Below are positions 1-41,627 of a stretch of 48,042 bases of DNA, one piece after another. Both the position numbers and the translations under genes were made by a program. The stretch comes from Ruminiclostridium sp. (lineage in GTDB: Bacteria > Bacillota > Clostridia > Oscillospirales > Ruminococcaceae), in NCBI GenBank assembly GCA_017625405.1, contig JAGALB010000034.1, positions 1-48,042 of the forward strand, read 5' to 3'. Numbering within the stretch: position 1 is the stretch's first letter; the number at the start of each line of letters is the position of its first letter. Below the pieces are notes generated by a model. That model did not search any database. It was not told the DNA's origin and worked only from the letters and a program-made list of their open reading frames with translations.

Positions 1-1319
1 CTGTCTGCGTTAGCGATAGTTATAGCTTTGTCGGAAAGGATGTTCAGCACTTTAGTCCTCTGAGAGTAGGTGTAGTCCTTGCCGTACACCAGCGTTTCGC
101 CGCTTTTTGTCGCGCTGACGCTGAACTGTGTTCCATGTACGAACTCTATGAACGAACCATTATTGTATTCGTATACTGTGGACGTGTTGCCGACCTTTAC
201 AGTGTGGTTCTCTGCTGTGACGTATGCGTAGATCTTTGTCTCGTTGCCGTGACTGTCGGGGTAGTCAACACCGTCGATCACGATGTCTTCGCCGTTCGGG
301 TTGTCTATTTCAAGCAGATATACGGGTGTGGTGCCGTCTGCAAGGGTGGGTGTGACAGGCTCGCCGCCTTCAAGGACATAGTCACCAGTCTGAACTCCGC
401 TACCGATGGCAGGTGCAGGAGAATCGCCGTAAAAAGAATCGCTATACGTTGAACCTATAGCATTCACAGAGCCGCCGCTGATGATGATATTATCAAGTGA
501 GCCATTATATCCGCCGCCGATACCTGCGCCACCCGCAGCGCCTGTTGCTGTAACGACAGCTTTATCTGTTATTGTAATATTTGCGGCTGAACCATTAGAT
601 CCGCCGCCGATGCCTGCGCCGTAGTCGCCGCCCTGCACGGAAAGAGAGCCTGTGCCGCAGATAGTCAGCGTTCCGACGCTATCGTCTGCGCCGTTCTTCT
701 GCAGACCTGCACGCTCTAGGCCACTCTTCAGCGTATTAGTCGTGCCGTCAGCAAGTGTGATTGTTACATTGCCCGTGCTGTTGTCAGCTATTTGGAATGC
801 ACAAGCACGCTGTGTCGCCGAAACATCAATATTTACCCCTGCAAGGGTGATGTTTGCGGAAACGTCGCTTGCAACCTCAATTCTGTTGGTTGTAGGTGTT
901 GAGGGGGTTTTATTTGCGATTGTGACAGGTGTTGCTGTGTTTATAATCAGTACACCGTTTTCGTAGGTGTAATCTACGCCCTCTGTGCCACCTGTAACAG
1001 TGAAATCACCCGTAGCCTGCCTTATCTGCAGGTGAAGAGTACTGTCTTTCTGAATACTGTAATCCTGGAGGGTATTGCCATCTTCTAACTGTTTGTCTGC
1101 GAATGTGAGTATTTGTGAATCAGGAGCAATTCCTTCTTTTTCCTGGATTTTTGCTTTTACATCTTCAATTCTGTCTGTTGGTTCGACCTCTAATGTAATA
1201 TGCTTATTTTCAGGTGTCTTAACAAATATCTGCATTGCTGATGCCGTAACTCCCAGTGCAAAAAGTCCCGTTATGCTTATCGTCATAATGACAAAAAATC
1301 GTAAAAGTTTTACTTTCAT
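1..1319 (-). CDS. Secreted ubiquitin-domain protein, partial (3' end beyond window)
   Basis: The frame is open from the ATG at 1319 to the window edge (about 439 residues, no stop). Residues 1-28 form a signal peptide (MKVKLLRFF, hydrophobic core, ends TASA). The residues just after it start MQIFVKT and run for 72 residues as a ubiquitin fold: by hand alignment to human ubiquitin recalled from memory, 53 of 72 positions are identical. All seven ubiquitin lysines (6, 11, 27, 29, 33, 48, 63) are present. The LRLRGG tail is replaced by IRQATG and the chain continues. The rest is Gly/Thr/Asn-rich beta-strand-like sequence with GAGIGGGxNGS motifs near residues 237 and 267, and a module ([12 protein letters not shown]...TPVTIAN) that recurs at the window edge, as in secreted beta-helix or surface proteins. 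It has a good ribosome site (AAAGGAG, 7-8 bp before ATG) and its own promoter. The ubiquitin domain probably came from a eukaryote; function unknown. Confidence 0.93.
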
Positions 1320-1364
1320 AAGCTTCTCCTTTGATATATATAAGGATACAATTAATTATAATAA

Positions 1365-2323: not shown

Positions 2324-3259
2324 CTAACAATAATCGTAGTTCAGTATTTCCAGAACGCATATAAGCTCATCTGGGTCATAGAGAAGTTCTTCTATCTCGT
2401 CACTGGTATATCCATTACTGTAGAGAATATCAATACAGGCTTCATCTATTCCGAAGCTCCATGCAACATCATAAAGGTCATCAAGAACAGGCGTTGTTTT
2501 AATAAGCCTGCAATATCTCAGATACCAGTTGTCCCAGTCATCATAGTCAAAAGTTTTTCTTTCGATTTCTCCGAAGCAGTTGATTTTAAGGATATCACCC
2601 TCTTTGATTTCAAGCTCGTATTTAGGACGTTTTGAAATACCCAGTTTCTCCATAGTATTAGAGAGTATGTCCTTTGTGCTGGCATATAAGTAAAAGCCGT
2701 CATTGTAGAAGTTGTAAATGGTTAACGGATTGCTACCTCTTACGAAATATATACTATCTTCTTCGTCAAGGATAGTGAATACAAAAGAGCCTTTCAGAGT
2801 TTCTGCCATTATCTTGACAGACTCAAAACTCAAATGCTTTTCTTTCTCAATAAGCTGAACAGCAGCATAGCTGTCTGTTTCTATTGTGGTTTCAGGTATT
2901 TCCTTGTTCCTGTGAAGCAGATAGTCGTTTGATATTACTCCGTTATGAGCCAAAGCAAATTGTTGTAATCCTGCTTTGCCTATAAAGGGATGATTATTGT
3001 AGTTTAAGAGCTGATTACCTTGTGTAGTCATTCGGGTGTGTCCCATTATGACATTCACGTTATCAGGGAGCTTAAGCTTTAATTTATGGGCAGGCAATGG
3101 CCTTTTAAATACCGTTAGCTTGTCCGACTTATTAAAGGCATAACCTGTTGCATCTGTTCCGCGAATTTCACATTCCTTGGAAAGCACTTTTAATATTTTC
3201 TCTTTTGTCTTTGTAGATAGGCGGTGGTTGTAGTCTATAAGTCCGAAAACTGCACACAT
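2324..3259 (-). CDS. Class II glutamine amidotransferase-like protein
   Basis: This 311-residue Ntn-hydrolase begins MCAVFGL, so removal of Met exposes the nucleophilic Cys2 used to release ammonia from glutamine. Other family signatures are visible: RGTDATGY near residue 33, GHTRMTTQG near 73, AHNGVISN near 105 and ETDSYAA near 127. It resembles the glutaminase half of GlmS/PurF but has no synthase domain; the last 100 residues are acidic and unassigned. It lies 3 bp after the amidoligase gene, and its ribosome site is inside that gene's terminal Glu codons. Amidoligases of the glutamine-synthetase-like fold are known to pair with class II amidotransferases, so it probably supplies ammonia to, or trims the product of, its neighbour. 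The substrate is unknown. Confidence 0.85.
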   Translation of the reverse strand: MCAVFGLIDYNHRLSTKTKEKILKVLSKECEIRGTDATGYAFNKSDKLTVFKRPLPAHKLKLKLPDNVNVIMGHTRMTTQGNQLLNYNNHPFIGKAGLQQFALAHNGVISNDYLLHRNKEIPETTIETDSYAAVQLIEKEKHLSFESVKIMAETLKGSFVFTILDEEDSIYFVRGSNPLTIYNFYNDGFYLYASTKDILSNTMEKLGISKRPKYELEIKEGDILKINCFGEIERKTFDYDDWDNWYLRYCRLIKTTPVLDDLYDVAWSFGIDEACIDILYSNGYTSDEIEELLYDPDELICVLEILNYDYC

Positions 3260-3262
3260 AAT

Positions 3263-4354
3263 TTATTCCTCCTCTATGGTTTCAATTGGTTCGTTGATAT
3301 AAAGCCTGCGTTCTTTGAGATAAGTAATAAGTTCTGGATAAAACTCTTCATCAATACCTTCAACAAACTCTGTCCAGCTTACCTTTGATATTTCCTCATC
3401 ATTGAAAGTCATAGCGTACTGACAGATAAGGTCTACAAGCTCCAGAGTTGCAAGAATTGTATTGACTTTAAGCGTTCCTCTGAACATTCTGAATTCTACA
3501 GTGTTCCAGTTCTGTAAGTTGATACAGGAATATCTGCCGTTACAGCCTTTCTTTGCATGTTCAAGGATTTCTTTTGGTGTATTCTTGTAACCGTACCTTG
3601 CCGCCCAGCGGTTCATGGTGTACTCGTTCCTACGGCTGAAACGTAAGAGTTCTTCCCAATGGTGTTCCACAAAATACAAAACCCGTGAGATTCGTTCATC
3701 CTGAATCTCACGGGTTTCTCCGAAGGTTGTTCTGTTGACGTGGATATGTAATCCACAGGTTGTTGTCTTATGGCTCTTGTAATCTAAGTCCAATGCCTTT
3801 TCACAAAGCTTAGTCCATGGCATTTCAGACTTGTGATATTCCAGTGACATAGGGTGTGTTACTATTTCCATTCCATCATTAAGAGAGCCATCTGACTTGA
3901 TATATATGAGCTCATCATTGTAATTGGCAATATACAGAAGCTTATCAGCACTGCTTCTTGATTTACCGCCAACATCAATCTCAAGCTCCACGCCGAAATA
4001 TCGGTTACCATCACCATAGAATATTGGGTCTGGCTTGTAACTGTATTCATGTATTGAACCCTGGTCATAACAATTACTGCAATATGGGTTATCATAATCA
4101 TCATACTCGGCGCTATCCTGATGGATAACCCTGTTACATTCCTCGCATACAGTGTAGCACTCATCGTAGCAGCGCTGGCAGAGGACAATATCCGAATCCC
4201 CAGCGTTATCGTCCTGCCATATACGTCTTCCGCAATGGTCACAGATATATGTCTGGTCATCGAGACAATCCTGACAATAGAAGTCATCATCAAACCAGAA
4301 GCCTGTATCCTCGCTAAGCTCACAATGACAGCAGGCACAGATAATCTCACTCAT
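3263..4354 (-). CDS. Zinc-ribbon amidoligase (Amidoligase_2-like)
   Basis: This 363-residue protein has two parts. Residues 1-100 hold three or more pairs of CxxC/CxxxC motifs (CACCHC, CQDC, CDHC, CQRC, CEEC, CSNC), a LIM-like or zinc-ribbon array. From about residue 115 the sequence matches the amidoligase fold: FGVELEIDVGG, IKSDGSLNDGMEIVTHPMS, CGLHIHVNRTTFG and NTVEFRMFRGTL, with the conserved Glu, His and Arg of glutamine-synthetase-like ligases. Such enzymes are predicted to join amino groups to carboxylates using ATP. I start at the ATG at 4354, which has GGAGAGGAG 7 bp upstream and overlaps the previous gene's end (TGA-A-ATG); an upstream ATG at 4399 lies inside that gene. It is in an operon with DUF960 and a class II amidotransferase. 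The target is unknown. Confidence 0.82.
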   Translation of the reverse strand: MSEIICACCHCELSEDTGFWFDDDFYCQDCLDDQTYICDHCGRRIWQDDNAGDSDIVLCQRCYDECYTVCEECNRVIHQDSAEYDDYDNPYCSNCYDQGSIHEYSYKPDPIFYGDGNRYFGVELEIDVGGKSRSSADKLLYIANYNDELIYIKSDGSLNDGMEIVTHPMSLEYHKSEMPWTKLCEKALDLDYKSHKTTTCGLHIHVNRTTFGETREIQDERISRVLYFVEHHWEELLRFSRRNEYTMNRWAARYGYKNTPKEILEHAKKGCNGRYSCINLQNWNTVEFRMFRGTLKVNTILATLELVDLICQYAMTFNDEEISKVSWTEFVEGIDEEFYPELITYLKERRLYINEPIETIEEE

Positions 4355-4355
4355 T

Positions 4356-4637
4356 TCAGTACTCCTCTCCCAAAAGCATAGTTGTGTAGCTTCCGTCATC
4401 GATAACGAACACAGTTTCTGTTACAGGCTCAGTATCAAGCAGGTATTCACGCTGATATTCAGGCTGTTCCTGTTTGTGGACTATTTTCTGTCTGCTGTTT
4501 TCCTCGGTTAAATAGAAAAACTGAATGTAGTCCTTCGGCTCATTCAGTTTTTCAATCAGGTTCCATAAAAACAGTTGGGTTAGGAGAGGGATTCTCTCAT
4601 TGACGCCTTTGGTTAAGTAGGGATGGTTTGTAAACAT
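4356..4637 (-). CDS. DUF960-family small protein
   Basis: This 93-residue protein has the DUF960 pattern: MFTNxxYLTKGVNERIPLLTQLFLWNLI near the start, QKIVHxQEQPEY in the middle and the C-terminal VFVIDDGSYTTMLLGEEY. Family members are common on Bacillota plasmids and integrative elements and have no established function. A strong ribosome site (GAAAGGAG) precedes the ATG. It is the first gene of the amidoligase operon and is translationally coupled to the second. A terminator-like hairpin with a T-tract sits in its leader. Confidence 0.75.
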   Translation of the reverse strand: MFTNHPYLTKGVNERIPLLTQLFLWNLIEKLNEPKDYIQFFYLTEENSRQKIVHKQEQPEYQREYLLDTEPVTETVFVIDDGSYTTMLLGEEY

Positions 4638-5034: not shown

Positions 5035-6750
5035 GTGACGAAAGAAAAATTACAAGAATTAAGAAATCTTGATACAAGCAAAGTTGAATTCTATCTGATT
5101 AACGAGTTAAAAGGAATAACGGGAAATGCGTATTATGCGGCGTTTTCTACTGCTTATGTTATAGTTAAATCCTCTGAAAACATAACAGCAGATATATCTT
5201 CCTTTGAAAACTTTTCAAGGGAATGTGCTATAAATTCAACAACCATTGAATTTTTATCATATTCCTTAAAGGGAGTTTGGGATTTCATAGCAAGAGCAAA
5301 AGGTATGTTTGATACTGATATGTATTTAGCATTTTTACTTTTCAGCGATTTGTCAGACACAAAATCGGATTTGACGGCAACCCCTGATAGTATTTCAGAG
5401 CTTGCTATTAGATTACTTGATATACAGAAAAGTGACAGAGTTGCTGATTATTTCACTGGAAGAGCATCATTTATCAGAGAATGCATTGTGCGTAATCTTA
5501 ATGCTAAGTATTTTGGTTTTGATATATGTGATTCTCTGAGTATAATCGCAACAATAAGAGCTGAATTTTTACAAAGCAATATTGAAATAGTACAGCAAAA
5601 TGTGCTCTCTATGGATTACGAAAATAAATTCAACAAAATTTTTGCCAATTATCCATTTGGAGTAAGAGTTACAAGCACCGATAATTCAAATGCACTTCAA
5701 TTTCTGAATAAAAGATTATCAATGTCAAAAAAAGTTATTTTTATGGATTGGCTCGCAAACACTACTATTATCAATACGCTTGCTCCAAATGGTAAGGCAG
5801 TATCTATTACAACAACAGGTGCCTTATTCAGGGGCGACGAAAGGGATATTCGTAAATATTTTATTGATAATGGCTACATCAACACAATTATCGCATTGCC
5901 AACAGGTATGTTTGAAACCACACGAATTTCAACAATACTGATTGTGTTCAGTCACAATAATCAGTCAGTAAGATTCGTAGACGCTCGTCAAATCTGCACT
6001 AAAGGAAGAAGATATAACACTTTCTCCAAAGAAAATATTGATGAAATAATTAACCTTTGCTCCAACGACGATAAATTAAGCAAACTTGTTTCAAAAAACG
6101 AAATCATTGATAAAGATTATAATCTTGACCCCAACACATACTTTGAAGCTGAAATAAATATACCTCACGGTACTATGTTTGAAACGGTAATAAAGAACAT
6201 CACTCGTGGAGCACAGCTTACAGCAAATCAGCTTGATGAGCTTTCATCCAATGAGCCGACCGAATACCAGTATTTAATGTTGTCTGATATTCGGAATGGA
6301 CAAATTGCGGAAGATTTATCCTATATTACAACAATAGAAAACAATCTTCTGAAATATTGTATAAAGGATAAGAGTATAATCATATCCAAAAGTGCTGCTC
6401 CGATAAAAACTGCTGTAGCTTCTGTCTCTGAAAAAGTAAATCTTCTCGCTACGGGTAATCTCTATGTTGTAGAAGTTGATACTGATAAAATCAATCCATA
6501 TTTCCTAAAGTCTTTCTTGGATAGTGATGTTGGAATTTTATCGTTGAAGTCAATTTGTGCTGGAACAACAATTCCCAATATTCCAATTGAGTCTTTAAAG
6601 AAGATGATTATCCCCGTTCCATCTATGGATGTTCAAAACACTATTGCTGAAAAGTATACAGCAGCTCAGAAAGAGTGCGCAAAACTTCAGGAGCAACTTA
6701 AACAGACAGAAATAAAGATGAGAAACATATATGAGGAAAACATTTCATAA
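5035..6750 (+). CDS. HsdM-HsdS-like fusion, degenerate N6-adenine methylase with one specificity domain
   Basis: This 571-residue protein aligns by pattern with type I methylase subunits. A helical N-terminus is followed by TPDSISELAIRLL near residue 116, a region at 136-146 (VADYFTGRASF) where AdoMet motif I (DPxxGxGxF) belongs, and ANYPFG at 204-209 where NPPF belongs. Residues from about 395 look like one HsdS half: a target-recognition domain, CAGTTIPNIPIESLKKMIIPVP, and a coiled coil (residues 540-565). Motif I lacks the usual glycines and motif IV has Tyr for the first Pro, so activity is uncertain. The GTG start has AAGGAGG 7-8 bp upstream. The mazF/hsdR remnants follow after 11 bp. 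It could be a regulatory DNA-binding remnant. Confidence 0.75.
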   Translation: MTKEKLQELRNLDTSKVEFYLINELKGITGNAYYAAFSTAYVIVKSSENITADISSFENFSRECAINSTTIEFLSYSLKGVWDFIARAKGMFDTDMYLAFLLFSDLSDTKSDLTATPDSISELAIRLLDIQKSDRVADYFTGRASFIRECIVRNLNAKYFGFDICDSLSIIATIRAEFLQSNIEIVQQNVLSMDYENKFNKIFANYPFGVRVTSTDNSNALQFLNKRLSMSKKVIFMDWLANTTIINTLAPNGKAVSITTTGALFRGDERDIRKYFIDNGYINTIIALPTGMFETTRISTILIVFSHNNQSVRFVDARQICTKGRRYNTFSKENIDEIINLCSNDDKLSKLVSKNEIIDKDYNLDPNTYFEAEINIPHGTMFETVIKNITRGAQLTANQLDELSSNEPTEYQYLMLSDIRNGQIAEDLSYITTIENNLLKYCIKDKSIIISKSAAPIKTAVASVSEKVNLLATGNLYVVEVDTDKINPYFLKSFLDSDVGILSLKSICAGTTIPNIPIESLKKMIIPVPSMDVQNTIAEKYTAAQKECAKLQEQLKQTEIKMRNIYEENIS

Positions 6751-6761
6751 GGGGGAATTAT

Positions 6762-7037
6762 ATGTACAAGTTCGGAGAGATTTATTTTGCAAATTTACCG
6801 GTTCAGCCTGACAGTAGAGTCCAGCAAGGATATAGACCTGTTCTTGTAGTATCCAATGACAAAAACAACTATTACAGCACCGTAGTATCAGTTGTTCCAT
6901 TGACTTCGAGCCGAACAAAACGTCATTTACCAACGCACATTAACAGGCACGAATTATCTTATTCAGCACTCGGCAGGCTCAGGCAAGTCCAATTCTATCG
7001 CTTGGACAGCTTATCGTCTTGCAAGCCTTCACGATGA
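6762..7037 (+). pseudogene. Truncated MazF/PemK-family toxin fused out of frame to hsdR DNA
   Basis: Residues 1-62 are a MazF-like endoribonuclease start: FGEIYFANLP, QQGYRPVLVVSND, VVSVVPLTSS and KRHLPTHI. The family normally continues another 45-50 residues. Here the remaining 29 residues (from NRHELSYS) are encoded by DNA that, in another frame, reads as the HsdR segment containing its P-loop. A recombination junction at about 6942-6948 therefore removed the toxin C-terminus, including half of the usual dimer core. No antitoxin gene is adjacent. A good ribosome site (AAGGGGG) remains, so a short protein may still be made but is unlikely to be an active toxin. Confidence 0.85.
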
Positions 7038-7038
7038 A

Positions 7039-9048
7039 ATGAACAATGCTGTATTCAACTCGGTAATTATTGTAACTGACCGTACTGTACTTGACGCACA
7101 GCTTCAGGAAACTATTTCAGGCTTCGACCATACTCTCGGAACAGTTGAAACTATCGGAGAGGGTAAAAACTCGAAAAATCTCCGTGATGCTATCAACAAT
7201 GGTTGTAGAATTATTGTTACAACGCTCCAGAAGTTCCCTGTAATTTATGAGGAAGTAGAAAGTACAGCAGGAAAGCATTTTGCTGTTATTGTCGATGAAG
7301 CTCATTCTTCACAGACAGGAACATCAGCAATAAAGCTGAAAACAGCACTTGCCGATACTGAAGCAGCGTTAAAGGAATACGCTGAAATTGAAGGTAAAGC
7401 TGAGGACGAGATTGACAAGCAGGACAAGCTTGTGCAGGAAATGCTCGCACACGGCAAACATAAGAATTTGTCATTCTTTGCATTTACTGCAACACCAAAG
7501 GAACAGACACTTGAAATGTTCGGTACAGAACACGAGGACGGCTCCTTCCATCCCTTCCACATCTATTCAATGAAACAGGCTATTGAAGAAGGCTTCATTA
7601 TGGATGTCCTTCAGAATTATATGACATATAATACCTGTTTCAAGATTGCAAAGACAATTCCTGATAACCCTGAAGTTCCAGCTTCAAGAGCAGCAAAGGT
7701 TATTCGCCGTTTTGAAGAACTGCACCCTTATAACATTGCACAGAAAGCTCAGATTATAGTTGAAACTTTCCTTTCAACTACTTCAAAGGCTATCGGCGGC
7801 AAGGGTAAAATGATGGTTGTTACAGCTTCAAGACTTGCGGCAGTAAGATATTATCACGAGGTCAAGAGATACATTCAGGAAAAGAAGTACGATAATATTG
7901 ATGTTCTTGTAGCTTTTTCAGGTGCTATTAACGACGGCGGGGATGAATATACAGAATCCAGACTTAATGTTCGTAAGGACGGCTCTCATATCTCTGAGGA
8001 ACAGACAAAAGCCGAATTCCACGACAATTTCAATGTACTTATCGTAGCTGAAAAGTATCAGACAGGATTTGACGAGCCTTTACTCCATACTATGATAGTT
8101 GATAAAAAGCTCCGTGGAGTAAAATGTGTCCAGACCCTTTCAAGACTTAATCGTATCTGCGAAAATAAGACAGATACCTATATTCTTGACTTTGTAAACA
8201 CAGCGGAAGATATTAAAAAGGCATTTCAGCCTTTCTACCAGGAAACATCACTTTCTCAGGAAGTTAATGTTGACCTGATATATCAGACACAGAAGGAGCT
8301 TCGTGGATACAAGCTCTATGATGATGCAAATATCAGCACTTTCTCAGATATTTATTATTCATCAAAGAAGCAGGACGATAAGATGATGGGCAAAATGACA
8401 TCTGCATTAAAGCCCGTTGCGGATAGATACAATGATTTGAGCAATGACGACAGGTATCAATTCCGCCGTTTACTTCGCTCCTACATCAAGTGGTACGGTT
8501 ATATTTCTCAGATATGCAGAATGTTTGATAAAGATATGCAAAGAGAATACACATTCTGTGCCTATCTTTTAAGACTTCTCCCGAATGAGTCTGTATCTAT
8601 GATAGATATTGAAAGTGCCTTAAAACTTGAATTCTACAAGTTGGAACAGACCTTTAAGGGCGGTATTGCACTTGATAATGCAACAGGTGTTTATGAGCCT
8701 TCAAAAGCAAAAGGAAAGGCAGTTCCTGAACAGAAAGAGCCTTTGGAAGAAGTTATTGATAAAATAAATCAGTTGTTTACTGGTAGTTTTAGTGAAGCAG
8801 ATAAGGTACTTCTTTATACGCTTCACGACAAGCTGAAGAATGACAAGAAGCTCGGAAAGATTGCAAAGTCCTCTGACCCACAGGTCTTTGTAGAAAGCAT
8901 TTTCCCGAAATCATTCGATACAGTAGCACAAGACAGCTATGTAGAGCAGACAGAAGCATTTACTTCACTTTTTGAAAACAAGAGCAAATATAATGCTGTT
9001 ATGGCTGCTCTTGCAGAAATGCTTTACAGAGAATTTAATAAAGAATAA
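7039..9048 (+). CDS. hsdR: Truncated HsdR (type I restriction motor subunit), lacking nuclease domain and P-loop
   Basis: The 669 residues match the HsdR motor and C-terminal region: SVIIVTDRTVLDAQL, VIVDEAHSSQTG (Walker B/DEAH), FAFTATPKEQT (motif III) and EKYQTGFDEPLLHTMIVDK, QTLSRLNR (motifs V-VI). A complete HsdR is about 1,000 residues. The N-terminal PD-(D/E)XK nuclease is absent. The Walker A sequence QHSAGSGKS is present in the DNA at 6964-6990, in this gene's frame, but lies upstream of the first usable start and inside the mazF frame; an in-frame stop at 6901-6903 closes the frame. The first ATG is 7039, in TGA-A-ATG coupling to the mazF remnant. Restriction activity should be lost. 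Downstream is a terminator. Confidence 0.88.
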   Translation: MNNAVFNSVIIVTDRTVLDAQLQETISGFDHTLGTVETIGEGKNSKNLRDAINNGCRIIVTTLQKFPVIYEEVESTAGKHFAVIVDEAHSSQTGTSAIKLKTALADTEAALKEYAEIEGKAEDEIDKQDKLVQEMLAHGKHKNLSFFAFTATPKEQTLEMFGTEHEDGSFHPFHIYSMKQAIEEGFIMDVLQNYMTYNTCFKIAKTIPDNPEVPASRAAKVIRRFEELHPYNIAQKAQIIVETFLSTTSKAIGGKGKMMVVTASRLAAVRYYHEVKRYIQEKKYDNIDVLVAFSGAINDGGDEYTESRLNVRKDGSHISEEQTKAEFHDNFNVLIVAEKYQTGFDEPLLHTMIVDKKLRGVKCVQTLSRLNRICENKTDTYILDFVNTAEDIKKAFQPFYQETSLSQEVNVDLIYQTQKELRGYKLYDDANISTFSDIYYSSKKQDDKMMGKMTSALKPVADRYNDLSNDDRYQFRRLLRSYIKWYGYISQICRMFDKDMQREYTFCAYLLRLLPNESVSMIDIESALKLEFYKLEQTFKGGIALDNATGVYEPSKAKGKAVPEQKEPLEEVIDKINQLFTGSFSEADKVLLYTLHDKLKNDKKLGKIAKSSDPQVFVESIFPKSFDTVAQDSYVEQTEAFTSLFENKSKYNAVMAALAEMLYREFNKE

Positions 9049-10137: not shown

Positions 10138-10166
10138 AAAACAAACCCACAAAGGAGGTGTCCCGT

Positions 10167-11789
10167 CTGAAATTTGCTATCTACTCACGAAAATCGAAAT
10201 TCACAGGTAAGGGTGAATCCATCGACAATCAGATTGACGAGTGCCGAAGATACATAATGGCTCAGTATCCTGATACAAAAGAAAGCGAAATCTTCATTTA
10301 CGAAGATGAAGGCTATTCGGGTAAGAATACGAAACGCCCGCAGTTCCAGCAAATGATGGCTGAGGAGGAAAGGGAACCTTTCGATTTAATCGTTGTTTAC
10401 CGCCTTGACCGTATCAGCCGTAACATGACCGATTTCGACAGGCTTATGGAAACGCTCACAAATAAGGGGACTTCCTTTTATTCAACCAACGAGCGGTTTG
10501 ATACCGCTACAATTTCGGGCAAGCTGATGATGACAATTTCTGCAGCCTTCGCCCAGTTTGAACGTCAGATAATCGCCGAGCGTGTAAGGGACAACGTCTA
10601 TAAGCTTGCTAAAACAGGTCGTTGGCTTGGCGGCACTCCGCCACTGGGATTCTACTCCGAAAAGGTAGAGTTTGTTGACGATTCAGGTGAAGACCGCAAG
10701 TGCTACAAGCTTACCGAAAACGAAGAAGAAATCGAAATTGTACGTCTTATATATGCGAAATATCTCGAAACACACTCCATAACAAAAGTGGAAACATTCA
10801 TGCTTAACGGTGGCTATAAAACCCGTAAGGATGCCAATTTCCATGTATCCACACTGCGTTACATACTCACAAATCCCACCTACTGCACAGCGGATAAGGA
10901 GAGCCTTAATTACTTCCGCAGTAAGGATTGTGACATTGCAGATATCGATGAAAAATGCAATGGTGAGCGTGGGTTTATGGGGTATAAAAAAACGCTTACT
11001 CAGAACAATGACCGCCGTGAATCTACCAATATGTCTGAATGGACAATCGCTCTCGGAAAACACAAGGGAATAATCCCCAGTGCCGACTGGATTGAGGTTC
11101 AGAATATCATTGAAGGCAACGCCGAAAAGAAAGTAGGTTTCCGTCAGTCCCACAATTCAGTTGCGCTTCTTTCGGGTGTGCTTCGCTGTAAATGCGGAAG
11201 CTATATGCGCCCTAAATATTACAAGGCAAACAAGGACGGCGAAAAGCCTTTCACCTATATGTGCGAGCTTAAGGAAGCCAGCAAACGTCAGCAGTGTGAC
11301 TGTCAGAATGTCAACGGCAGAGTTGTTGACAAAATGGTTTGCGACGCACTTCTTGACTATGAAAATGACGGCAGTGTTTTTGCAAAATATGTGGGTGAAA
11401 TTGCCGACATAGGAAGCAAAAACGAAAACATAGCAAACCTTATCAAAACCCAGACAGCAACTATTGCAAAAAAGAAAAAGACCATTTCTGGTCTTTTACG
11501 AATGGCGGGAGATGACGACAATCTCACCGCTGAATATGTACGTGATGAAATAGCTCAGCTCCATAAGGAAATAGGAGAAGCCGAGAATGAAATCAAGCGT
11601 CTTGAACGTCTGAAAAAGAGCGGCGAAACTCTTTCGGAAGCTGTAAACAGCACCGGGGAAATGCTTAAAGCATTCAAGTCAGGCTTTGATAAAATGAGCG
11701 TTGAAAACAAGCGTGCATTTATACGCAAGTGCGTAAGCAAAGTCGAATGGGACGGAGAAAACATCAGCGTTTTTCTCCTGGATAGATGA
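10167..11789 (+). CDS. Large serine recombinase (element integrase), probable CTG start
   Basis: This protein of about 540 residues catalyses integration and excision of the element. Order of domains: resolvase domain with FAIYSRKS (catalytic Ser at residue 7), VVYRLDRISRN and FAQFERQIIAERV; recombinase domain (residues 160-290); zinc beta-ribbon with CKCG and later C-x-CDC pairs (about 345-385); a coiled coil (about 430-500). Homologues start MKFAIYSRKS. Here that Met is a CTG at 10167, with AAAGGAGG exactly 8 bp upstream. The only nearby standard start, GTG at 10158, overlaps the ribosome site and is unlikely. The stop is 54 bp before the resumed dpaB sequence, so the integrase sits at the element's right end. 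Confidence 0.93.
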   Translation: MKFAIYSRKSKFTGKGESIDNQIDECRRYIMAQYPDTKESEIFIYEDEGYSGKNTKRPQFQQMMAEEEREPFDLIVVYRLDRISRNMTDFDRLMETLTNKGTSFYSTNERFDTATISGKLMMTISAAFAQFERQIIAERVRDNVYKLAKTGRWLGGTPPLGFYSEKVEFVDDSGEDRKCYKLTENEEEIEIVRLIYAKYLETHSITKVETFMLNGGYKTRKDANFHVSTLRYILTNPTYCTADKESLNYFRSKDCDIADIDEKCNGERGFMGYKKTLTQNNDRRESTNMSEWTIALGKHKGIIPSADWIEVQNIIEGNAEKKVGFRQSHNSVALLSGVLRCKCGSYMRPKYYKANKDGEKPFTYMCELKEASKRQQCDCQNVNGRVVDKMVCDALLDYENDGSVFAKYVGEIADIGSKNENIANLIKTQTATIAKKKKTISGLLRMAGDDDNLTAEYVRDEIAQLHKEIGEAENEIKRLERLKKSGETLSEAVNSTGEMLKAFKSGFDKMSVENKRAFIRKCVSKVEWDGENISVFLLDR

Positions 11790-39710: not shown

Positions 39711-41627
39711 ATGTTTGTATCTATTGATAAGGATAAATGCGTAGGCTGTAACGCCTGCATAAGAGCCTGTCCTATAAAGGAAGCCAACGAAGCGCATCTT
39801 GCAGAGGACGGCATGCATTCAATTGTAAATATCAATAAGGATAAATGTATCAGCTGCGGTGAATGTGTCAAGAAGTGTGAACACGGTGCACGTGTATACG
39901 AGGATGATACTGACAGATTCTTCGGTGCGCTCAAGGGCAGAGTAAACATTACTGTTATTGTTGCGCCCGCTTTCCGTCTTACCGAGCCTGATGCTGACGC
40001 CATGCTTGCATTCCTGCGTGATGAGCTTAATGTAAAGCTTATTTATGATGTATCTTTCGGCGCAGATATCTGTACATACATGCATTTAAAGGCAGTAAAG
40101 GAAAAGGTAGTAAGAAAGATTGTATCACAGCCCTGCGCTGCTACCACTGAATATATCCTCAAGCATCGCCACGATATGATTCAGTCCCTTTCTCCCGTTC
40201 ATTCTCCTATATCATGTACAGCTGTTTATCTGCGTAAGTATATGAATATTACAAACGATATTGCTTGTATTTCTCCTTGTATTGCCAAGAAGTTCGAGTT
40301 CAACGAAACAGGACTTGTTCAGTACAATGTTACTTTCAAGCGCTTTGCTGAATACATCCGCAAGCATTATCCCCATTTTGACAAGGAAGCTACTTTCAGG
40401 TTTGATAACCCTGACTGCTACTGTGGTAAGATTTATCCCAAGCCCGGCGGTCTTAAGGAATGTCTTCTTCACGCAGAGCCTTCTCTTACTGTAAGAAACT
40501 GTGAAGGTGTTTCACATGTATACGACGCACTGGATTATTATTACTACAATGCCAAGGAAAACGAAAGACCTGCGGTATTTGATATACTCAGCTGCGCCAA
40601 CGGCTGTATTTCCGGTCCCGGAACAAACTTTGAAGAAGCCGATATGTTCCGTTATCTTTCCGCTGCCGACAGACTTTCCGCAGAAAGCTTTGAAGCACGT
40701 GAAGGTCAGACTGCAAAGAGTTTCAACAAGACAATAGACAAGCAGTTTGATTTATTTGACAAGAAGCTTAAATTTGAAGATTTCATAAGAGATTATGAGC
40801 CCAAGAAGATAGAAGAAAAGCAGATTACCGAACAGGATGTCAAGGACGCTTATACAGCCCTTCTCAAGACAACCAAGGCAGAGCAGAATTTCAACTGCGG
40901 CGCCTGCGGTTACAATTCCTGTGAAGAAATGGCAAATGCTATCGCAATGGGACGTAACGTTCCTCAGAACTGCCACCAGTTCAATGTCCGTCAGGCGGGC
41001 GTTGCTGTTCAGCAGGCCGTAGCGGCAAGTGATGCTGCAAAGGCACAGAACAATATGATTGTCGGCGTTATTGATGATATCGTAGGCGACATCAATCTGA
41101 TCAGAAATGATACAAACAGCATCGGTGAACGCTGTGAAGTCAATAAGACATCTATGGCTACCGTTGAACAGAAGCTTGAAATGCTTCGTGGAAAGTGCGC
41201 TGAAATCGACGGCGCTATCCAGGGTATCATCCATGTAAATGACCTTTATAACAAGATGGCAGGCGCTATCCGCACAATTACCGAGCAGACACATATCCTT
41301 TCGCTCAATGCTTCTGTTGAGGCTGCAAGAGCAGGCGCAGCAGGCAAGACCTTCCAGGTTGTTGCGGGTGAAATCCGTTCTCTTGCTGCAAACACCAAGG
41401 CTACTACCAAGACGGTAGAAGAAAACGATGAAATCGTAAAGGGCGAAACTGCAAAGGTTCTTAAAATTGCTGAGGATATCGAAAGAATGGTAAATGAGCT
41501 TGCACAGGTTATGGAAGAGGTTCAGGAAAACCTCAACAAGACCAACAGCATAGGCGAGAACATTGAAACCGTTGCTGAGGAAATCACAACTTCAACAGAT
41601 GAACTCCGCAGAATGACCAATCAGTAA
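39711..41627 (+). CDS. [FeFe]-hydrogenase-like sensor fused to a chemotaxis (MCP) signalling domain
   Basis: This 638-residue soluble protein has, in order: two 4Fe-4S ferredoxin motifs (CVGCNACIRACP and CISCGECVKKC, residues 11-60); an H-cluster domain with altered motifs SQPCAATTEY (about 140), ISPCIAKKFE (about 190) and LSCANGCISGPG (about 295), keeping the cluster cysteines; a further Fe-S motif CGACGYNSCEEM...NC (about 395-420); and a C-terminal methyl-accepting coiled coil with the tip EQTHILSLNASVEAARAG (about 525-542). Catalytic hydrogenases have TSC at motif 1; the change, plus the MCP module, fits a sensory hydrogenase that reports H2 or redox state to CheA. No membrane segments. 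It stands alone with its own promoter; no che or hydrogenase genes are adjacent. Confidence 0.9.
   Translation: MFVSIDKDKCVGCNACIRACPIKEANEAHLAEDGMHSIVNINKDKCISCGECVKKCEHGARVYEDDTDRFFGALKGRVNITVIVAPAFRLTEPDADAMLAFLRDELNVKLIYDVSFGADICTYMHLKAVKEKVVRKIVSQPCAATTEYILKHRHDMIQSLSPVHSPISCTAVYLRKYMNITNDIACISPCIAKKFEFNETGLVQYNVTFKRFAEYIRKHYPHFDKEATFRFDNPDCYCGKIYPKPGGLKECLLHAEPSLTVRNCEGVSHVYDALDYYYYNAKENERPAVFDILSCANGCISGPGTNFEEADMFRYLSAADRLSAESFEAREGQTAKSFNKTIDKQFDLFDKKLKFEDFIRDYEPKKIEEKQITEQDVKDAYTALLKTTKAEQNFNCGACGYNSCEEMANAIAMGRNVPQNCHQFNVRQAGVAVQQAVAASDAAKAQNNMIVGVIDDIVGDINLIRNDTNSIGERCEVNKTSMATVEQKLEMLRGKCAEIDGAIQGIIHVNDLYNKMAGAIRTITEQTHILSLNASVEAARAGAAGKTFQVVAGEIRSLAANTKATTKTVEENDEIVKGETAKVLKIAEDIERMVNELAQVMEEVQENLNKTNSIGENIETVAEEITTSTDELRRMTNQ

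What the first reader, a model, noticed from the sequence alone, without database searches (positions are those of the whole stretch)
1..1319. A bacterial secreted protein that begins with a near-complete ubiquitin
Residues 29-100 of this reading frame can be aligned without gaps to human ubiquitin, 53 of 72 identical by hand count (reference recalled from memory). This is far above the level of bacterial ubiquitin-like folds such as ThiS or MoaD and points to transfer from a eukaryote. Bacteroides fragilis is a known case of a secreted ubiquitin in a gut bacterium. Here the domain is fused to a long surface-type repeat protein on an integrative element. Possible roles are host or protozoal mimicry, decoy or trap functions; these are inference.
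Basis: partly seen in the sequence, partly recalled or inferred. Interest (0 to 1): 0.92.

Follow-up and report, generated by a model that had tools for sequence, protein, structure and literature searches.

The report
Exported bacterial protein with protist-type ubiquitin
A bacterium makes an exported repeat protein whose front end is a ubiquitin of the trichomonad kind, and many unrelated bacteria have a similar arrangement, which suggests that bacteria took ubiquitin from eukaryotes, probably more than once, and use it outside the cell.

Summary
The ORF (window 1319..3, minus strand, cut by the contig end) has a signal peptide (aa 1-28) and then 72 gap-free ubiquitin residues, 53/72 identical to human (PF00240, 79.8 bits). 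It is closer to Trichomonas vaginalis ubiquitin (61/72), with all 8 residues separating that protein from human. The same genome holds a homologue without ubiquitin whose signal peptide runs straight into the repeat part, so ubiquitin sits at the signal-peptidase junction. One scan found 110 relatives, 80 kept. In 94 of 97 loci tested the cleavage motif abuts ubiquitin residue 1. 94 distinct domains split into Trichomonas (42), Entamoeba (21) and general (31) types. One bacterial clade is rejected on 26 chosen rows (p 7.5e-10), not on all 95 (p 0.145). Many relatives end in anchor-like signals (43 of 90); Gly-Gly is absent except in one viral polyubiquitin-like contig. Best reading: captured protist ubiquitin displayed as a non-conjugatable tip that ubiquitin-binding eukaryotic proteins recognise. 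Capture and placement are well supported; display of the window protein and binding are inferred.

The parts
1326..1331 (-). ribosome-binding site AAGGAG
   Evidence: read from the sequence
1236..1319 (-). signal peptide, aa 1-28, [28 protein letters not shown], cleavage predicted A28|M29 by motif
   Evidence: ORF; homologous to the signal peptides of ubiquitin-less homologues L106 (own genome) and L118; -3/-1 motif exactly before ubiquitin residue 1 in 94 of 97 loci tested
1020..1235 (-). ubiquitin domain, aa 29-100 (ubiquitin residues 1-72), Trichomonas type, no Gly-Gly tail
   Evidence: PF00240 79.8 bits; identity 61/72 T. vaginalis type, 53/72 human, 51/72 E. histolytica type
3..1019 (-). 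partner: glycine-rich beta-helix-like repeat region, aa 101-439, cut by the contig end
   Evidence: PF18889 0.00059, below cut-off; homologues in 13 of 297 family genomes, the own genome included; homologous region without ubiquitin on contig C41
1553..2284 (-). small serine recombinase (resolvase/invertase type) directly upstream; neighbour, role in the fusion not shown
   Evidence: PF00239 1.8e-27
10158..11789 (+). large serine recombinase; hint of a mobile island
   Evidence: PF00239, PF07508, PF13408

Best explanation
A ubiquitin gene of parabasalid type, taken from a eukaryote directly or through other bacteria, came to lie in frame exactly between the signal peptide and the mature part of an exported beta-helix repeat protein. 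After Sec export, signal peptidase I would cut at A28|M29 and leave a protein that starts with ubiquitin residue 1, so that ubiquitin becomes the free N-terminal tip of a surface or secreted protein. It cannot be conjugated (no Gly-Gly; the chain goes on into the partner). Most likely it works as a displayed ligand: ubiquitin-binding or deubiquitinating proteins of eukaryotic cells, above all protists that live with and eat bacteria, recognise it, which alters adhesion, uptake or fate of the bacterium. Shown here: ubiquitin type, junction, fusion, purifying selection in relatives. Inferred: cleavage, display of the window protein (its C-terminus is missing), the host's gut habitat, any binding. 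My odds: protist-type eukaryotic origin 0.9, extracellular display 0.75, eukaryote-directed recognition 0.4.
For: Origin: the phmmer score of PDB 5xy3_m (T. vaginalis ribosome by a passage of PMC8860606) against the Trichomonas-type consensus (144.2) equals that of an identical sequence, and each of ten single changes tried costs at least 1.3 bits; this fits identity but does not print the sequence. L025, a bacterial contig, is identical to that consensus over residues 1-71. 4gsw_A (E. histolytica by passages of PMC8588831) likewise scores as identical to the Entamoeba-type consensus (151.7; eight changes tried, smallest drop 0.5). Window: 8 of 8 Trichomonas sites. Tree of 26 chosen rows: Trichomonas type with T. 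vaginalis 98/98, Entamoeba type with E. histolytica 96/92, single bacterial clade p 7.5e-10. Junction. Different ubiquitins on one partner: window (T) and L010 (E) partners 64% identical over 129 aa, ubiquitins 48/71; L071 (E) and L082 (general) partners 60% over 180 aa, ubiquitins 56/71; window, L010 and L013 as one clade p 0.022. Display in relatives: among 92 proteins autotransporter barrel 9, SLH 3, IPTL-CTERM 2, VPDSG-CTERM 1, T9SS tail 1; anchor-like C-terminal signals in 43 of 90 proteins with a stop codon by a crude rule; a homologous gene near the ubiquitin gene in 5 of 81 loci, a sortase in the one tested (L041). Selection: median dN/dS 0.155 in 56 non-independent same-type pairs with dS under 1.2. 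In the Entamoeba type the recognition surface is nearly intact (I44 patch 95% kept, not corrected for scan bias).
Against: In the window itself L8, I44 and V70 are replaced, so the classical recognition face is damaged; in the Trichomonas type the I44 patch is kept at 65% and the E1-contact positions at 49% (40 rows, corrected for the scan's peptide patterns). On all 95 rows neither a single bacterial clade (p 0.145) nor the Trichomonas type with human ubiquitin (p 0.35) is rejected; two further tests there did not finish. Only three ubiquitins and NEDD8 served as eukaryotic references; other protists may share these residues. The ubiquitin-less homologue could have lost rather than never had ubiquitin. 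47 of 90 proteins show no anchor by the rule used. No binding data exist, and the nearest studied protein, BfUbb, is antibacterial.
Confidence: 0.5

Rival explanations
1. Antibacterial weapon like B. fragilis BfUbb: the ubiquitin domain, free or released from the partner, inhibits competing bacteria.
For: BfUbb is a secreted ubiquitin with the cleavage site at residue 1 and inhibits some B. fragilis strains; bovine ubiquitin does not (PMC5705921, sections read). Small secreted forms exist in the family: L028 81, L091 92, L092 98, L039 109 residues after the cleavage site.
Against: Most members are much longer and many have anchor-like ends, which suits display better than diffusion; no neighbour cluster reaches more than 9 of 81 loci, so no common immunity gene is seen, though BfUbb is reported to need none, so this is weak.
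Confidence: 0.2
2. Structural cap: ubiquitin is kept as a very stable, protease-resistant fold that helps export, folding or protection of the N-terminus, without any ubiquitin-specific recognition.
For: Very diverse partners behind one N-terminal fold; in the Trichomonas type core positions are kept at 93% while I44 and E1 faces erode.
Against: Non-core residues of the Entamoeba type are kept at 92% (biased upward by the scan); lysines at 90% in the Trichomonas type; ubiquitin-less homologues manage without a cap.
Confidence: 0.22
3. Decoy or suicide substrate inside eukaryotic cells (E1 trap).
For: Recombinant BfUbb binds human E1 and inhibits ubiquitination in vitro (PMC3352274 abstract; discussion).
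Against: Window tail is QATG and continues into the partner; E1-contact positions are among the most eroded; no delivery system among the 24 window ORFs scanned.
Confidence: 0.05
4. Contamination or assembly chimera of eukaryotic DNA.
For: The window is a draft contig and many loci are metagenome bins.
Against: Signal peptide, ubiquitin and partner share one frame; the same layout occurs in records that name strains, for instance Massilimicrobiota An134, Thiocapsa marina 5811 and Parabacteroides An277, and on the R. albus 7 plasmid pRUMAL01.
Confidence: 0.01

Closest known systems
BfUbb of Bacteroides fragilis (PMC3352274, PMC5705921; sections read)
   Same: Eukaryotic-type ubiquitin in a gut bacterium, signal peptide cut exactly before residue 1, no Gly-Gly tail, present in some strains only
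   Different: BfUbb is a free 76-residue protein; the window's is fused to a repeat protein and 61/72 identical to the T. vaginalis type. The BfUbb sequence itself was not compared here
'ubiquitin family protein' WP_013483628.1 of Ruminococcus albus 7, plasmid pRUMAL01
   Same: Signal peptide ...TANA| then ubiquitin then a partner
   Different: 69.4% identical to the window domain, general type by eye, a different partner; named in the record only
Ubiquitin fusions of eukaryotes (ubiquitin-eL40, ubiquitin-eS31; recalled; PDB 5xy3_m is a 132-residue chain called 'Ubiquitin, putative')
   Same: Ubiquitin is N-terminal to another protein
   Different: There the Gly-Gly is cut by deubiquitinases (recalled); here no Gly-Gly, a signal peptide and a bacterial partner
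Secreted ubiquitin effector of the nematode Globodera rostochiensis (as told in PMC5705921)
   Same: Signal peptide plus ubiquitin plus a C-terminal extension
   Different: Made by a eukaryote, short extension that is cut off

Membership tests
Ubiquitin family (PF00240) | profile match over the curated cut-off | tested here: met
   79.8 bits against 25.4
Ubiquitin family (PF00240) | groups with eukaryotic ubiquitin rather than with other beta-grasp modifiers | tested here: inconclusive
   groups with T. vaginalis ubiquitin, 98/98, NEDD8 as outgroup, on 26 chosen rows; unstarred on 95 rows; ThiS and MoaD were not included
Conjugable ubiquitin | free C-terminal Gly-Gly | tested here: not met
   residues 73-76 QATG, followed by 335 more residues up to the contig end
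Conjugable ubiquitin | E1/E2/E3 genes nearby | tested here: not met
   no such Pfam match in the 24 window ORFs scanned; other ORFs of the window and the rest of the genome were not scanned for them
BfUbb-type secreted bacterial ubiquitin | signal peptide cut directly before ubiquitin residue 1 | tested here: met
   ...TASA|MQIF; by motif only, no signal-peptide predictor was run
BfUbb-type secreted bacterial ubiquitin | stand-alone 76-residue mature protein | tested here: not met
   fused to at least 339 residues
BfUbb-type secreted bacterial ubiquitin | inhibits related bacteria | not testable with these tools
   needs an assay
Surface-anchored protein | C-terminal anchor or sorting signal | tested here: inconclusive
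   window C-terminus lies beyond the contig; 43 of 90 relatives with a stop codon carry an anchor-like end

The most novel reading that the evidence does not exclude
Bacteria of several phyla have independently taken ubiquitin from the eukaryotes that share their habitat, trichomonads and Entamoeba among them, organisms that eat bacteria, and spliced it behind the signal peptides of unrelated surface proteins as an exchangeable tip. They thus wear their predator's or neighbour's own ubiquitin to steer recognition or uptake: a general extracellular ubiquitin mimicry system matched to the local eukaryote.
Probability: 0.3. Interest if true: 0.93.

Novelty: new variant of a known kind. Interest (0 to 1): 0.82.

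Why it matters
In the papers read, bacterial ubiquitin is a trait of B. fragilis and 'a few bacteria' with an unclear donor (PMC5705921). The set found here gives likely donor lineages for two types, an exact junction with a with-and-without pair in one genome, and evidence that the same partner carries ubiquitins of different type. That makes the question of why bacteria export ubiquitin directly testable, and offers a readable case of likely repeated eukaryote-to-bacterium transfer of a housekeeping protein that gained an extracellular place.

Tried and rejected
Rejected: chance similarity; contamination (one frame; strains named in records); phage cargo in the phage collection (no match in 50,697 records; 3 loci in viral contigs: L099 and L100 with the same signal-peptide layout, and L098 a polyubiquitin-like frame without signal peptide); a conserved conjugation operon (1,103 ORFs around 81 loci; largest cluster 9 loci, ABC-type ATPases by eye, then one of 6 that looks like a tRNA synthetase; the sortase-like cluster has 5); DNA inversion of the N-terminus by the adjacent recombinase (no inverted-repeat pair of 18 nt or more flanks the signal peptide or ubiquitin); continuation of the gene on contig C41 (that homologue also runs off its contig end in the same sense, so the window gene's end stays unknown).

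One search was a search for PDB codes.

Bias and dropped rows: the scan requires an exact peptide of the query, so conservation figures are inflated; one search corrects the Trichomonas type only. L013 falls under the 'general' threshold but groups with the Entamoeba type. The 31 'general' domains include three viral-contig loci (L098-L100). Dropped: L006, L016, L017, L066 and duplicates L053, L057; also L098, L015, L035 in the trees. Left out of the 92-member scan: L015, L016, L017, L055, L066, L098-L100. Not counted for the cleavage motif: L015, L043, L098 (under 20 residues upstream); without motif: L011, L016, L017. The 26 rows were chosen after the types were known.

Correction: an earlier count said 6 of 20 mixed partner clusters; one search shows 5 of 19.

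Full report
Observation. The minus-strand ORF at 1319..3 codes for 439 residues and runs off the end of the contig; the window is the whole contig C29, 48,042 bases, of a 2.1-Mb genome in 64 contigs. Residues 1-28 look like a signal peptide ending TASA; residues 29-100 align without gaps to ubiquitin residues 1-72, 53 identical to human. PF00240 scores 79.8 bits. The genome has this one ubiquitin match. None of the 7 other genomes of its genus in the family sample has one; in that sample 17 of 396 genomes do, the own genome included, and in a phylum-wide sample 5 of 398, 4 of them over the family cut-off, the own genome again included.

Which ubiquitin. The window domain is 61/72 identical to the T. 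vaginalis type, 53 to human and 51 to the E. histolytica type. The protist sequences were checked indirectly: the PDB scores of 5xy3_m and 4gsw_A equal those of a sequence identical to the typed consensus, and every single change tried lowers them (ten changes, at least 1.3 bits, for the first; eight changes, at least 0.5 bits, for the second). The organisms of these entries come from passages of PMC8860606 and PMC8588831. Eight positions separate T. vaginalis from human ubiquitin and eight separate E. histolytica. The window has 8 of 8 of the former and 1 of 8 of the latter. Over 94 distinct domains the count of Trichomonas sites is bimodal: 0-2 or 5-8, never 3-4; the scan that found most of them favours window-like peptides, but in the profile-based family sample the window and L014 have 8 and the other 13 domains printed have 0 or 1. 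L025, an alphaproteobacterial bin, is identical to the T. vaginalis type over residues 1-71.

The family. One scan of the collection of 84,980 species genomes found 110 relatives, 80 kept, in Bacillota, Pseudomonadota, Bacteroidota, Actinomycetota, Verrucomicrobiota, Fibrobacterota and a Nomurabacteria bin. By diagnostic sites 42 of 94 domains are Trichomonas type, 21 Entamoeba type and 31 general. All 19 scan-found Entamoeba-type loci have titles matching my gut word list, against 5 of 18 general ones and 13 of 40 Trichomonas-type ones; many titles of the last give no source, and some words of the list (study codes) are my own reading. In 94 of 97 loci with at least 20 residues upstream (of 100) a residue of the -3 set and Ala/Gly/Ser at -1 stand exactly before ubiquitin residue 1; the next best offset has 50. 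A stricter rule with start codon, charge and hydrophobic stretch is met by 86 of 100.

Trees. On 95 rows and 72 columns the three types form three sectors, each holding its eukaryotic reference on a zero-length branch, but support is 83-88 without a star, and neither a single bacterial clade (p 0.145) nor the Trichomonas type with human ubiquitin (p 0.35) is rejected; two more tests did not finish. On 26 chosen rows the Trichomonas type plus T. vaginalis has 98/98, the Entamoeba type plus E. histolytica 96/92, a single bacterial clade gives p 7.5e-10, and the Trichomonas type with human ubiquitin p 0.0005. More than one transfer from eukaryotes is therefore likely but rests on short sequences, chosen rows and few references.

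The junction. Contig C41 of the same genome holds a homologue with the signal peptide MKTKFLKLLAVMTISITAIFALGITASA followed at once by ATAGDFTI and the same kind of repeat region; G234, whose 75%-complete assembly shows no ubiquitin match, has nearly the same. In the window the order is TASA, ubiquitin, then ATGDFTV. The DNA alignment shows matching signal-peptide and repeat regions on either side; the aligner set some partner bases against ubiquitin, so the junction itself is read from the proteins. Gain in the window or loss in the homologue cannot be told from one pair, but of the 13 family genomes with the partner only three, G000, G111 and G118, have a ubiquitin match, which favours gain. 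G111 and G118 carry ubiquitin in front of the same repeat domain, but of another type: the partners of the window and L010 are 64% identical over 129 residues, their ubiquitins 48 of 71. L071 and L082 show the same for another partner (60% over 180 residues, ubiquitins 56 of 71). In all, 5 of 19 partner clusters (91 partners compared) mix types, some at low identity. The three domains on the window's partner are not one clade (p 0.022). Either capture or swapping of the module has happened more than once.

Partners and anchors. Among 92 proteins, some incomplete, Pfam finds InlB-type repeats in 14, autotransporter barrels in 9, DUF6273 in 8, CBM_X2 in 8, BspA-type leucine-rich repeats in 4, SLH in 3, and one or two each of three sorting tails. 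A crude rule finds an anchor-like end in 43 of 90 proteins with a stop codon (26 membrane segment with basic tail, 6 LPXTG-like, 11 ending like an outer-membrane barrel) and none in 47. Five of 81 loci have a homologous gene near ubiquitin; the one tested is a sortase. Thiocapsa marina (L033) has little more than ubiquitin and an anchor-like tail. The window's own C-terminus is unknown.

Constraint. Same-type pairs with dS under 1.2 have a median dN/dS of 0.155 (56 non-independent pairs). In 40 scan-found Trichomonas-type rows, corrected for scan bias, core positions are kept at 93%, the F4 patch at 93%, positions 54-60 at 95%, lysines at 90%, the I44 patch at 65% and the E1-contact rim at 49% (patch names recalled). 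In the Entamoeba type the I44 patch is kept at 95% (uncorrected). Gly75-Gly76 occurs in 0 of 42, 0 of 21 and 1 of 31 domains; the one is L098, a polyubiquitin-like frame on a viral contig without signal peptide.

Mechanism. Shown by sequence: in-frame fusion, junction, ubiquitin type, absence of a conjugable tail, constraint in relatives. Inferred from known signal-peptidase rules: maturation to a protein starting with ubiquitin Met1. Inferred from relatives: display at the envelope. Inferred without direct evidence: recognition by ubiquitin-binding proteins of eukaryotes. The likeness to known protists speaks for contact with them but may reflect only opportunity for transfer. The antibacterial rival is real because of BfUbb.

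Novelty. PMC5705921 (abstract, two sections and passages seen) calls B. fragilis one of a few bacteria with such a protein and leaves its source open; PMC3352274 (abstract and two sections seen) proposed an insect-virus link. Eight searches for a description of the wider family showed none in their listings, two of them being empty; preprints were not covered.

Noticed in passing
window 2324-4399: Glutamine amidotransferase-like and Amidoligase_2-like genes in a row beside the recombinase; role unknown.
   Followed up: no
window 5035-9048: Type I restriction genes: N6 methylase fused to a specificity domain, and an R-like helicase.
   Followed up: no
window 39711-41627: Iron-hydrogenase-like large-subunit domain fused to a methyl-accepting chemotaxis signalling domain.
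   Followed up: no
L087, L095: Paracidovorax oryzae and P. citrulli records carry an exported-type ubiquitin with a C-terminal membrane-type tail.
   Followed up: no
L099, L100: Two metagenomic viral contigs carry a signal-peptide-plus-ubiquitin protein of 444 residues after the cleavage site.
   Followed up: no
L098 2011-2745: A viral contig with a frame of at least three ubiquitin-like repeats joined by Gly-rich linkers, the first with LRGG.
   Followed up: no
L024 9545-11977: In Frisingicoccus caecimuris the ubiquitin stands far inside a longer reading frame, not directly after a typical signal peptide.
   Followed up: no
L063 7132-8171: This locus seems to hold two neighbouring ubiquitin genes; the scan and my script picked different ones.
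   Followed up: no
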